DNA of 34,289 bases from Anaerolineales bacterium (GTDB taxonomy: Bacteria; Chloroflexota; Anaerolineae; Anaerolineales; DRKV01), in contig JANTFR010000009.1 of the NCBI GenBank assembly GCA_024763355.1, forward strand, positions 1-34,289, read 5' to 3'. Below, in pieces: positions 23,056 through 31,567 of this stretch. The translations under genes were made by a program, and so were the position numbers. The notes below the pieces were generated by a model. The model was not told the DNA's origin. It worked only from the letters and a program-made list of their open reading frames with translations, and searched no databases. How positions within the stretch are numbered: position 1 is the first letter of the stretch; every line of letters starts with the position of its first letter.

Positions 23056-24229
23056 TTTTGAAACTGCCCTGGAGGAAAGCATTACCCTGTTGCGTTCTGG
23101 CAGCAGCGTGGAAGAGTGCTTGCAGCGCTTTCCCCAATATGCCGGGGAACTGCGTCCCCTGCTGGAGACCGCAGCCGCGATTTCTGCGGTGCGGTTGCCC
23201 GCGCCCTCCCCTGAAGTCATGCGCCGCAGCCGCGAGCGGATGTTCCGGGAAGCAGACAAGCAATTTGCTCAACAGGCCGTACCCATTTCTCCGTTTTCCC
23301 GTTATGTGGGTAGATTTTTCAACCTGCTAACAGGAAAGGAGACTTTGAATATGAAAACTACAACTCGCCTCGCTTTTACGGTTGCAATTCTGGCGCTCTT
23401 CATTGTCAGCGGCCTGGGTGTCAACCTGGTTTCGGCCAATGCCCTGCCCGGAGACGCTCTCTACCCGGCCAAACGTTTCTTCGAGAAAGCGCGTCTGACC
23501 TTTACCGTCAACCCCCAGACACGCGTCCAGGTGGAGCGTCAACTGCAGGAGCGCCGCCGGGAGGAAGTACGCACAGTCCTCGAAATGCAGCGTCAGGTGG
23601 ATGTCGAATTCTCCGGCGAATTGATGGCCTTCGATAATGAAACCTGGACGGTAGGCGGTTTCACCCTGCAACTGAATGCTCGCACCGAAATCCAGGGCGC
23701 CCCGCAAATCGGTGTAATGGTAAGTGCGCGGGCCGCGGTCGGGAAGGACGGCGTTTTGCAGGCCGAGTCCCTCGTGGTCTCGCCGCTGAACCAGCCTGCG
23801 GCGTACCCCGGCCCGGAGAATACGGCCCCGGCCATGCCGAGCCAGACTCCCATGCCCACTCATACCCAAATGGCCAGTGAGACGCCGGAGTGGACGCATA
23901 CCCCGATGTCCAGCCACACGCCGGAGCCCAGTGAGACCTGGGAACCGCCGCACGAAACGCCGGAGCACACGTCGGAGCCCAGCGAGACCTGGGAGCCGAG
24001 CGAAACGCCGGAGCAAGAACACACTCCCATGCCTAGCGCAACCTGGGAGCCGAGTGAGACGCCGGAGTGGACGCATACCCCGATGCCCAGCCACACGCCG
24101 GAGCCCAGTGAGACCTGGGAACCGCCGCACGAAACGCCGGAGCACACGCCGGAGCCCAGTGAGACTTGGGAACCGCCGCACGAAACACCAGAGCACACGC
24201 CGATGCCGACTGGGATGCCGCATCCCTGA
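23045..24229 (+). CDS. DUF5667-like membrane protein with DUF5666-like domain and long P/E/T/H repeat tail
   Basis: ALPGDALYPAKRFFEKARLTF; VDVEFSGELMAFDNETWTVGGFTLQLNARTEI; SETPEWTHTPMPSHTPEPSETWEPPHETPEHT repeats; overlaps sigma gene by 11 bp. Confidence 0.75.
   Translation: MNPDFETALEESITLLRSGSSVEECLQRFPQYAGELRPLLETAAAISAVRLPAPSPEVMRRSRERMFREADKQFAQQAVPISPFSRYVGRFFNLLTGKETLNMKTTTRLAFTVAILALFIVSGLGVNLVSANALPGDALYPAKRFFEKARLTFTVNPQTRVQVERQLQERRREEVRTVLEMQRQVDVEFSGELMAFDNETWTVGGFTLQLNARTEIQGAPQIGVMVSARAAVGKDGVLQAESLVVSPLNQPAAYPGPENTAPAMPSQTPMPTHTQMASETPEWTHTPMSSHTPEPSETWEPPHETPEHTSEPSETWEPSETPEQEHTPMPSATWEPSETPEWTHTPMPSHTPEPSETWEPPHETPEHTPEPSETWEPPHETPEHTPMPTGMPHP
23876..24158 (+). repeat. 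In-frame duplication: ~105-bp near-identical copies at 23876-23981 and 24053-24158 (offset 177 bp)
   Basis: AGTGAGACGCCGGAGTGGACGCATACCCCGATGYCCAGCCACACGCCGGAGCCCAGTGAGACCTGGGAACCGCCGCACGAAACGCCGGAGCACACG... in both. Confidence 0.9.
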
Positions 24230-27842: not shown

Positions 27843-28307
27843 TCACGGCGCGGCGAGATAGGCCTTTCGAATTTGCGCTATCCGCTTGCGGTTCACCCCC
27901 AAATCGGAATACCCGCTGCGGGAGGCGGAGCGGAGATGGATGCGGTCTCCGTCCCGATAAAACTCCACGTCGTCAATGTACCCCACCAGGGCGGTGCGGA
28001 AAATGTAGTGCCGGTAATTGTCCTCGGCGTCTGCCAATGCAGCACCCGGCATGGCGGAAACGACTGCATCCAGGCGCGCCAGGGCGGTTTCGGGGTCGCC
28101 CTCGACGGGCAAAGGGGCAATTCGGTGTTCGGGGGATGTTTCGTAGGACGAAACGCAATTCGGAGAAGCGGGACAGGGAGACAATTTCCCATCATGTATC
28201 CCCGGAGGGAGGGGCGGTTGGGCGCGGGCGGCCATGACGCGCAGCCCTGTCCACCCCAACGCGAGCAGCAGTAACAGAGCCACTGGAATTTTCACCACGT
28301 TTCTCAT
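27843..28307 (-). CDS. DUF1499 family protein
   Basis: LSPCPASPNCVSSYETSPEHRIAPL...DNYRHYIFRTALVGYIDDVEFY; RSASRSGYSDLGVNRKRIAQIRKAY. Confidence 0.85.
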   Translation of the reverse strand: MRNVVKIPVALLLLLALGWTGLRVMAARAQPPLPPGIHDGKLSPCPASPNCVSSYETSPEHRIAPLPVEGDPETALARLDAVVSAMPGAALADAEDNYRHYIFRTALVGYIDDVEFYRDGDRIHLRSASRSGYSDLGVNRKRIAQIRKAYLAAP

Positions 28308-28309
28308 AG

Positions 28310-28340
28310 GCTCACGCATCCACCGGCGGCGCGGCGTCGC
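28310..28340. repeat. 31-bp perfect direct repeat, distal copy (end of toxin gene)
   Basis: GCTCACGCATCCACCGGCGGCGCGGCGTCGC, identical to 29075-29105. Confidence 0.95.
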
Positions 28341-28755
28341 TCAGGGACTGTATTTCGGCAATCAACGCCGGAAGGTTGGGGGAGGTAAAACTCATGTTAG
28401 GGGCAGGGATGCGGTGGTGCTTGATATCTGGCGGAATGTGCTTGTGGTGCGGGTGCGTGCTTTGCAAATTTTCATCGTTAGGATGGGGTTGGGGGTCGTA
28501 CCAGTACAGTTTTTCCTCTCCCTGATACACTTCATAGCCGTACCAGGTTATCACAACTGGCAGATGGTGAAAGGCCAACCGCTCGCGCACAACCAGCCGA
28601 ATCCCGTTGGAGAAGAACAACGTTCCTGCGACACGCGCCAAAGTAGCCCCGCGGCGTACAAAAGTCAATGTAGAGCGCCTGATAGACGGGTAGCGCTCTT
28701 TCAACGTGTAGATGAACAATTCGTAATCTTCGGGAGTACGAAAGTACTGATTCAT
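28312..28755 (-). CDS. DUF6516/TumE-like toxin
   Basis: YPSIRRSTLTFVRRGATLARVAGTLFFSNGIRL...YGYEVYQGEEKLYWYDPQPHPNDENLQSTHPHHKHIPPDIKHHRIPAPNMSFTSPNLPALIAEI. Confidence 0.7.
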   Translation of the reverse strand: MNQYFRTPEDYELFIYTLKERYPSIRRSTLTFVRRGATLARVAGTLFFSNGIRLVVRERLAFHHLPVVITWYGYEVYQGEEKLYWYDPQPHPNDENLQSTHPHHKHIPPDIKHHRIPAPNMSFTSPNLPALIAEIQSLSDAAPPVDA

Positions 28756-29024
28756 GTGCGTTCCCGCACCAGGCCCGCCAGACCTGGCTGACGGCGTTGC
28801 CGGCGCTGAATCTCGTTGCGATATTCTGCCTGACGCTCCAACCAGGTGCGGTACACGCTTGCCCATTCCCCAAAATCCATCCACCACTCTTCGTTTTCCG
28901 GCTCTTCCCCCGCTGTGTACGCTGCGTACAATGTTTCAGAGCGGATGCCGTATTTCCGCTCGAACTCCAGCAATTCCTCTTCCAGAGCGTGAATATCCGC
29001 CAGGATACTGCGTATATCGTTCAT
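28752..29024 (-). CDS. Putative cognate antitoxin (TumA-like)
   Basis: 90 aa, acidic, overlaps toxin start by 4 bp (ATGA); SD GGTGGAGGT and TATAAT upstream. Confidence 0.65.
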   Translation of the reverse strand: MNDIRSILADIHALEEELLEFERKYGIRSETLYAAYTAGEEPENEEWWMDFGEWASVYRTWLERQAEYRNEIQRRQRRQPGLAGLVRERT

Positions 29025-29074
29025 CGTGCACCTCCACCTGTATTATAACGCTAATGCCCGTGTCTGTTTTCGCC

Positions 29075-29105
29075 GCTCACGCATCCACCGGCGGCGCGGC
29101 GTCGC
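29075..29105. repeat. 31-bp perfect direct repeat, proximal copy (end of ftsK)
   Basis: Identical to 28310-28340. Confidence 0.95.
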
Positions 29106-31476
29106 CCCAATCCAGGATTTCGCGGTGGGTCGTGCCCGGCAGCGGGGCGCTGACGATGCCCTTCTCCTCCATCTGCTCCACCAGGCGGGCGGCGCGGGTA
29201 TAGCCAATTCGCAGGCGGCGCTGGAGCATGGAAATCGAGACGCGCCCCTGGCGGCGCACTAAATCCACCGCATCGGGGTAGAGCGGGTCGCCGGGGTTGG
29301 CGGCCTCCTCCATCTCGTCCAGGAGGGCCATTTGCTTGAGCGGAATGCCGGCGGGCAGGCCGCCGACCGGAGCCTCGTGCGCCGTCGGAGTCAGGTCTTG
29401 CGGGCGCAGGAAAGCGCGCCAGTAGCGCACCACCCGGCGGATTTCCTCATCGGAAACGTACACCCCTTGCAGGCGCACCGGCGCGGGCGCGTCGGGAGCC
29501 TGGAAGAGCATGTCGCCCTGCCCCAGGAGACGCTCCGCCCCCGGCTGGTCGAGAATGACGCGGCTGTCCACCCCGGAGGCCACGGCGAAGGCAACCCGTG
29601 CCGGGAAATTGGCCTTGATGAGACCGGTCACCACGTTGACCGAGGGGCGCTGCGTAGCAATCACCAAATGGATGCCGGTAGCGCGCGCCAACTGCGCCAG
29701 GCGCGTTACGCTTCGCTCCGTCTCTTCGGGGGCCAGCATCATCAGGTCGGCCAGTTCGTCAATCACCACTACCAGGTAAGGCAGTTTCTTCTCGCCGGCG
29801 GCCTCCTTACGGGCATTGTACTCCGCCAGATTCCGCACCCCCAGGTCGGAGAACTTGCGGTAACGCATATCCATCTCGCGGGTCACCCATTGGAGCGCGC
29901 CCACCACCCGCTCCAGGTCCACCACCACGGGGGCCAGCAGGTGCGGGATGCCGTTGTAGCCGGTCAATTCCACCCGCTTGGGGTCTACCATGATGAAGCG
30001 CAGGTCGTCGGGCGTGTTGTGCAGCAGGAGGCAGGTAATCAGCCCGTTGACGCACACCGATTTACCGGAACCGGTCGCCCCGGCAATCAGCAGGTGGGGC
30101 ATGGCGCTCAGGTCGGCGGCCACGGCGTTCCCGGCCACATCCTGCCCCAGGGCGAAGCGCAAAGGCGATTTCAGACGCTCGAAGGCCGGGCTTTCGATGA
30201 CATCCCGCAGGGCGACCAGGTTGGGGGCCTCGTTGGGCACTTCGATACCCACGTACCCCTTGCCGGGCACGGGGGCCTGGATACGCACCCGCCGGGCGGC
30301 CAGCGCCAGCGCCAGGTCGTCGGCCAGGGCCGCGATTTTGTTGACACGCACCCGCGTGCGCCCGCTGCGTGTTTCCAGGAAGTCTGGCTCCACGCCAAAC
30401 TGGGTAATCGTCGGGCCGCGGTTGATTTCCACCACGCGGGCCGGGGCCTTGAAGAGCGCCAGGGTCTCCTCGATGAGGCGGGCGCGCTGCAAATCGTAGT
30501 CGTCGTCGTAAACCGCTTCGGGGCTGGAATCGAGCATCTCGGAGACGGGGGGCAAAATCCAGACGGGCGATTCTTCGGGGGGAGATTCGGGGGAAGCGGC
30601 CCCCTCCGGAAGGGGCTGTCCGCTTTGGGATGCCTCCGCTCCCTCAAATGGGGTTGCGCCTTCGGGCGCGGCGGGAACGGACCCCCTTCGGGCGGCCAGC
30701 CATCCCCGAAGGGGAATCCACCCTTTGGGGCGGTACTGCTCCCAGCGCCCCTTCAAACTCTCCCCGATGGGACGCAGCCAGGCAAACAGGGAGAGAACGG
30801 GGCGGTCGAGGGTCAGGGTGAGGGCCGCCAGCAGCCAGGCCAGCAGGACGATGACCGTTCCGGCCCAGCCCAGGGCGTAGCGGAGGACTTCCAACGCGGC
30901 CGCGCCGAGGTAGCCGCCGCCGTGACCCTGCCGGGCGAGGGTGAAACTCTTCGCGCCGTTTGGGGGCAGGAGGAGCAGGTGCAGCCAGACGAGCAGGTTG
31001 AGGTAACCCAGCGCCGCGCCGAGAAGCCGCTCCGGGGCAGGCCAGGGGAGGCGCTCGAAATCGCGCAGGATGAGCCACAGGCCGAGGGCCAGCAGCGCCA
31101 GCGGAAAGACCCACGCTCCCCAGCCCAGGGCGCGCCGCAGGAACGTCACCCACGCTCCGGCCAGGGCGCTGCGTTCCCCGGCGGCTAAACTAAGCACACT
31201 GAGCAGCCCGACGAGAACGGAAAAGATGCCGACCAGGTCCAGTTTGCGGTCCAGCGAGAGGGTGGGCGGGGGCGGGGAGGGCGTTGCTTTGGGAGCGGCG
31301 CGTTTTGCGCCTTTGGAAGATGCCGGTTTGGCGGGAGCGCGGCGCGCCTGCCAATCCTGCCAGCGGGCGCGCACCCAGGCGAAACGTCCTGCGGGGACGT
31401 TTTTGGGCTTGCGTTTGCGTGCCGTGGATTTCCCCTTCTTCGCGGCGGGCTTTTTGCGGGGTTTGCGAGCGCTCAT
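29077..31476 (-). CDS. ftsK: FtsK/SpoIIIE-type DNA translocase
   Basis: [67 protein letters not shown], gamma-like winged-helix C-terminus; N-terminal TMs. Confidence 0.95.
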
Positions 31477-31488
31477 GCTGCGATTATA
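31477..31488 (-). promoter_or_regulatory. Predicted leaderless promoter -10 (minus strand): TATAAT-CGCAGC-ATG
   Basis: attata 31483-31488; CAT 31474-31476. Confidence 0.55.
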
Positions 31489-31567
31489 CACGAATGTCCA
31501 CGAATGGACACGAATAACACGAATAGCACGAAAATGGTGACAGTCACTTGGGAAGTGACTGTCACCT
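31489..31567. repeat. CACGAAT array plus hairpin GGTGACAGTCACTT..AAGTGACTGTCACC; inverted copy of 13495-13630 unit
   Basis: Reverse complement GGTGACAGTCACTTCCCAAGTGACTGTCACCATTTTCGTGCTATTCGTGTTATTCGTGTCCATTCGTGGACATTCGTG. Confidence 0.9.

What the first reader, a model, noticed from the sequence alone, without database searches (positions are those of the whole stretch)
28310..29105. Toxin-antitoxin cassette bounded by a 31-bp direct repeat that supplies the C-termini of both FtsK and the toxin
Seen directly: GCTCACGCATCCACCGGCGGCGCGGCGTCGC occurs perfectly at 28310-28340 and 29075-29105, 765 bp apart. FtsK ends ...[11 protein letters not shown] and the TumE-like toxin ends ...[13 protein letters not shown], both encoded in the same frame by the repeat and using the same stop. 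Removing one repeat plus the 734 bp between copies would leave ftsK only 4 nt upstream of the DUF1499 ATG (28307), a tight operon junction. Inference: a promoter-antitoxin-toxin cassette inserted at, or duplicated, the 3' end of an essential gene without disrupting it, with no recombinase in the cassette. This looks like a minimal att-like or recombination-mediated TA insertion, possibly a way for TA modules to tie themselves to ftsK.
Basis: partly seen in the sequence, partly recalled or inferred. Interest (0 to 1): 0.85.

Follow-up and report, generated by a model that had tools for sequence, protein, structure and literature searches.

The report
Toxin-antitoxin inserted behind duplicated ftsK tail
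A small toxin-antitoxin gene pair has been inserted just after the essential gene ftsK, leaving a second copy of that gene's last 31 bases on its far side; the same pattern recurs behind other housekeeping genes, so it looks like one case of a general, transposase-free way in which addictive gene pairs enter genomes.

Summary
The repeat is real: 31 bp, exact, 765 bp apart, far beyond chance. It is the native 3' end of ftsK: FtsK orthologs end in the same type of tail, while none of 180 other TumE toxins ends in DAAPPVDA. A TumA-TumE module was inserted right after the ftsK stop; the toxin takes its last eight codons and stop from the second copy.

ftsK is not special. Tight flanking direct repeats occur at 27/143 TumE, 11/42 BrnT and 4/24 ParE loci, against 0/28 acetyltransferase loci and 8/238 sham positions. 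Many are the 3' end of an unrelated housekeeping gene (nadA, DNA ligase, acyl-CoA dehydrogenase). Empty sites with one repeat copy were found for a BrnTA insertion in a single-contig genome and a TumAE insertion behind DNA ligase. The window's own empty site is untested: no informative close relative.

The pattern matches 'insertion with long target duplication', described for restriction-modification genes. New here: its frequency in type II toxin-antitoxin modules and its anchoring at stop codons. Repeat copies often differ mainly at third codon positions, so one copy probably often arrived with the module as a homology arm. The insertion reading is strong; the mechanism is inferred.

The parts
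29075..29105 (-). Repeat copy 1: genuine 3' end of ftsK (GDAAPPVDA, stop, 2 nt)
   Evidence: Exact 31-bp repeat; FtsK orthologs end in the same type of tail
28310..28340 (-). Repeat copy 2: supplies the last 8 codons and stop of the toxin and lies 2 nt before the sequence leading into DUF1499
   Evidence: tail absent from 180 other TumE genes
28341..29074 (-). 734-bp insert holding the TumA-TumE module; 54% G+C against 67.5% in ftsK
28752..29024 (-). Antitoxin, TumA-like (90 aa)
   Evidence: NF045776 at 4.2e-5, below cut-off; PADLOC PDC-M44A 4.9e-6
28312..28755 (-). Toxin TumE (147 aa); residues 140-147 encoded by repeat copy 2
   Evidence: PF20126 at 5.5e-14 over residues 47-137
29077..31530 (-). 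ftsK, intact, upstream neighbour and source of the repeat
   Evidence: FtsK domains; orthologs in 58 of 61 relatives searched
27843..28307 (-). DUF1499 gene, downstream neighbour; 4 nt from the ftsK stop if the insert and one repeat are removed
   Evidence: PF07386 at 5.1e-34

Best explanation
A type II TumA-TumE module, carried without any recombinase, was inserted in the same orientation immediately behind the ftsK stop codon. The insertion left the 3' end of ftsK on both sides, so FtsK stays intact and DUF1499 keeps its lead-in; the right junction fell inside the last toxin codons, so the toxin ends with the copied ftsK tail. [quoted passage not shown] Most likely mechanism (inferred): incoming DNA holding the module next to a stretch of the target gene's 3' end is joined in by homologous recombination in that stretch on one side and by non-homologous joining on the other; an in-place duplication during break repair or template switching is the close alternative. 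Addiction would explain why the insert is not lost again through the repeats (inference, untested).
For: Exact repeat equal to the ftsK tail; tail foreign to TumE. Same architecture at TumE 27/143, BrnT 11/42 and ParE 4/24 loci, 0/28 GNAT loci, 8/238 sham positions (also 26/149 against 7/542). Empty sites with one repeat copy: BrnTA in G013, at least 12 empty congeners; TumAE behind DNA ligase, G317 empty and G189 split with a 70-bp overlap. Left repeat ends within 15 bp of the upstream gene's stop in 14 of 32 loci, background about 7%. Repeat copies differ at codon positions 1:2:3 as 34:17:82 in 13 loci (7:3:32 in five BrnTA loci), the mark of two once-functional gene ends.
Against: No relative with the ftsK-DUF1499 junction exists in the genomes searched, so the window's own empty site is unseen. 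The window copies are identical and cannot tell a carried copy from an in-place duplicate. At the ligase site the differences are spread over codon positions, as plain decay would give. No significant crossover mosaic in the repeats. No donor found; retention by addiction not measured. Most genomes are metagenome assemblies.
Confidence: 0.8

Rival explanations
1. Plain target-site duplication: a staggered break or a replication template switch at the ftsK end captured the module, and both repeat copies are native ftsK sequence.
For: Window copies identical and 195 bp identical in L141; neutral-looking decay at the ligase site L212/L224; lengths vary as in break repair.
Against: Third-position bias in most of the diverged repeats, above all at BrnTA loci (7:3:32); anchoring of one repeat end at the stop codon is not predicted except through selection.
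Confidence: 0.35
2. Remnant of, or passenger mobilised in trans by, a site-specific integrative element: the repeat is attL/attR at the ftsK 3' end, as for islands that replace the end of their target gene.
For: Repeat ends at the stop codon and rebuilds the gene, as att sites in protein genes do; coding-type differences between copies; serial insertions at one site in G296.
Against: No integrase in the inserts; many unrelated target genes and variable repeat lengths; homology between modules at different sites ends at the two genes and their leader; inserts hold little but the TA pair.
Confidence: 0.1
3. Chance or assembly artefact: the two copies are coincidental or were made by joining contigs at a shared 31-mer.
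For: The genome is a draft in 285 contigs, and 31 is a common assembly k-mer (own knowledge).
Against: 5e-10 expected pairs; in frame in both genes; the same architecture in the single-contig G013 with empty sites in congeners.
Confidence: 0.03

Closest known systems
Insertion with long target duplication of restriction-modification genes (Nobusato et al. 2000, Gene 259:99, as cited in PMC1643837, PMC3031569 and PMC3874152)
   Same: Addictive gene unit without a transposase, flanked by long variable direct repeats of target DNA (order of 100 bp); single copy at the empty site
   Different: Cargo is a type II toxin-antitoxin pair, not R-M; here the repeat is often exactly a gene's 3' end ending at the stop codon, and it can become part of the toxin; seen mainly in Chloroflexota and some other phyla rather than Helicobacter. 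The original paper was not readable here.
TumE/TumA toxin-antitoxin family (PF20126; paper PMC10584680; PADLOC PDC-M44)
   Same: Antitoxin-toxin order, TumE domain over the Pfam cut-off, weak TumA match
   Different: The toxin carries an ftsK-derived tail of eight residues
Integrative elements that dock in protein-gene 3' ends (such as e14 in icd; from own knowledge)
   Same: Target gene end rebuilt and displaced end left on the far side; copies differ mostly at silent sites
   Different: No integrase, no fixed core, many targets, insert under 1 kb

Membership tests
Insertion with long target duplication | Insert flanked by direct repeats of target DNA, long and variable in length | tested here: met
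   31 bp in the window; mostly 31-204 bp at other TumE loci, 46-248 bp at BrnT loci
Insertion with long target duplication | Related genome has the empty site with a single repeat copy | tested here: inconclusive
   Met for BrnTA in G013 and TumAE at DNA ligase; not testable for the window itself
Insertion with long target duplication | Insert holds an addiction-type gene unit and no transposase or integrase | tested here: met
   Only TumA and TumE in 28341-29074
TumE/TumA toxin-antitoxin | TumE domain above the curated cut-off | tested here: met
   52.4 bits, cut-off 23.4
TumE/TumA toxin-antitoxin | Cognate TumA antitoxin upstream | tested here: inconclusive
   Right place and overlap; 23.7 bits, cut-off 100; PDC-M44A 4.9e-6
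TumE/TumA toxin-antitoxin | Toxicity of TumE and rescue by TumA | not testable with these tools
   Needs expression in a laboratory strain
Site-specific integrative element | Integrase gene within the element | tested here: not met
   No such gene between the repeats
Site-specific integrative element | Same att core at independent insertions | tested here: not met
   Each insertion has the end of a different gene

The most novel reading that the evidence does not exclude
Type II toxin-antitoxin modules spread as integrase-free elements that travel with a stretch of a housekeeping gene's 3' end as a homology arm, dock behind that gene's stop codon by host recombination, leave both operon neighbours intact, and persist despite long flanking repeats because loss kills; serial rounds build arrays behind one gene, as at the DNA ligase of G296.
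Probability: 0.35. Interest if true: 0.8.

Novelty: new variant of a known kind. Interest (0 to 1): 0.62.

Why it matters
How chromosomal toxin-antitoxin pairs move without a transposase is an old open question. Here the footprint is visible and countable: roughly one in five of the modules tested sits between two copies of host sequence, often a gene end, and single-copy empty sites exist in congeners. That makes the mechanism testable in a naturally transformable laboratory strain and gives a simple signature for recently arrived addiction modules. It also shows how a protein can gain a new C-terminus from an unrelated essential gene.

Tried and rejected
Other copies of the repeat in the own genome: only a weak 35-bp hit inside an unrelated gene on contig C6, treated as chance. 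ftsK as a special docking site: the longest repeat of the ftsK tail downstream in 39 relatives was 8-14 bp, no more than in controls. Unbiased scan of 400 kb of G185: most repeat pairs are paralogous genes or domain repeats; a BrnT locus and an antirepressor-like gene behind lpd were the clear cassette-type cases. Crossover mosaics in the repeats: combined p = 0.08, not significant. Integron attC as an account of the multi-copy repeats at L146: no special fold, not pursued. Bro-N survey: family nearly absent in the class, so no control from it. A second BrnT sample of 15 gave no new positive locus, so the rate varies. Other insertions at the G013 site in congeners (L369, L370 and protease genes) carry no repeat. 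Paper searches found target duplications for R-M genes but no report for toxin-antitoxin modules; subscription papers, including the original one, are not in the library.

Full report
Observation. Chance is negligible. Both coding claims hold: FtsK and the TumE-like toxin end in DAAPPVDA and use the same stop. The toxin is TumE by Pfam; the antitoxin resembles TumA but scores well under the curated cut-off; PADLOC lists both as candidate system PDC-M44. The neighbourhood is ordinary: radical SAM genes, alanine racemase, DUF1499, ftsK.

Which gene owns the repeat. FtsK orthologs from relatives mostly end in LDYGxAAPPVDE-type tails, so the tail is native to ftsK. TumE homologs align up to about residue 138 and then stop or carry unrelated tails. 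Among 181 distinct TumE genes only the window's carries this tail. The toxin therefore acquired it from the ftsK copy.

It recurs. Scanning TumE loci for direct repeats just outside the two genes gave 22 strong hits (a few are the same locus fetched twice), against none when flanks were exchanged between loci. With gapped alignment and duplicates removed, 26 of 149 testable loci had tight repeats against 7 of 542 sham positions. The inserts mostly measure 717-890 bp and the repeats mostly 31-204 bp, at 74-100% identity, with a few longer. BrnT/BrnA loci, taken as a control, show the same thing. With one uniform criterion: TumE 27/143, BrnT 11/28 in the first sample and 11/42 with the second, ParE 4/24, acetyltransferase genes 0/28, sham 8/238.

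What the repeats are. [quoted passage not shown] The left copy ends within 15 bp of that gene's stop in 14 of 32 loci, against about 7% background; the mirrored arrangement is rare. In L059 the toxin takes its last codons and stop from nadA exactly as the window's toxin does from ftsK.

Empty sites. The junction predicted by removing the BrnTA insert and one repeat from G013, a single-contig genome, matches without a break in at least 12 congeners, while G013 itself splits with a 112-bp overlap. The DNA ligase junction is unbroken in G317 and split with a 70-bp overlap in G189. In G296 four copies of the ligase end separate a 244-aa gene (DUF3800-like by eye), a TumA gene with a broken TumE, and a lipoprotein-like gene. 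The window's own junction has no counterpart: neither congener yielded the ftsK ortholog and DUF1499 is rare in the order.

Mechanism. If the second copy were a plain duplicate decaying as non-coding DNA, differences should fall on all codon positions, with at most a modest excess at the third from silent change in the intact gene. They are spread at the ligase site, but in 13 loci together they are 34:17:82 for positions 1:2:3, and 7:3:32 for five BrnTA loci; both depart from the modest excess I would expect, 1.1:1:1.7 (p = 1e-4 and 2e-4, that expectation being my own estimate). This is what two functional orthologs look like, so in those cases one copy probably came in with the module. The window copies are identical and do not decide. 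I take recombination through a carried 3' end as most likely overall, with in-place duplication close behind; both give the same architecture. Shown: the repeats, their enrichment, the empty sites elsewhere, the borrowed tail. Inferred: the direction and route of insertion in the window, and retention by addiction.

Known or new. Insertion with long and variable target duplications is described for restriction-modification genes (Nobusato et al. 2000 as cited in PMC1643837 and PMC3031569; PMC3874152 gives about 100 bp). A review of TA systems cites it only by analogy (PMC2654758). No report for type II TA modules was found in the open library. I file this as a new variant of that known kind. 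It works somewhat like an att-type element but is not one by the two features tested.

Limits. Most genomes are metagenome assemblies; some listed repeats are probably of other kinds (hairpin repeats in L157/L161, multi-copy repeats in L146/L274, repetitive genes in L269); no function was measured.

Noticed in passing
window 23850-24220: Coding repeats rich in Pro, Thr and Glu (SETWEPP...ETPEHTPE) at the end of a gene, with the longest direct repeat in the window (62 bp exact).
   Followed up: no
L386 (G296:C79:28500-32200, read on the minus strand): Array behind DNA ligase: four copies of the ligase 3' end separated by a 244-aa DUF3800-like gene, a TumA gene with an internally deleted TumE, and a lipoprotein-like gene; looks like serial insertions at one site.
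   Followed up: partly
L390 (G185:C1:1931814-1932895): A 262-aa antirepressor-like gene behind lpd, flanked by a 65-bp, 83% copy of the lpd 3' end: the same architecture with a cargo that is not a known toxin-antitoxin pair.
   Followed up: partly
L146 and L274 (G366:C8): A TumE module in a series of about 180-bp repeats spaced roughly 0.7-0.95 kb; possibly an integron-like or other cassette array.
   Followed up: partly
L157 and L161: Ignavibacteria and Kapabacterium genomes share a TumE module (95% identical) flanked by the same terminator-like hairpin repeats, with homology ending at them.
   Followed up: no
window 27843-28307: DUF1499 gene behind ftsK is absent from the two congeners and family relative and found in only 7 of 121 genomes of the sample, so it may itself be a recent arrival.
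   Followed up: partly
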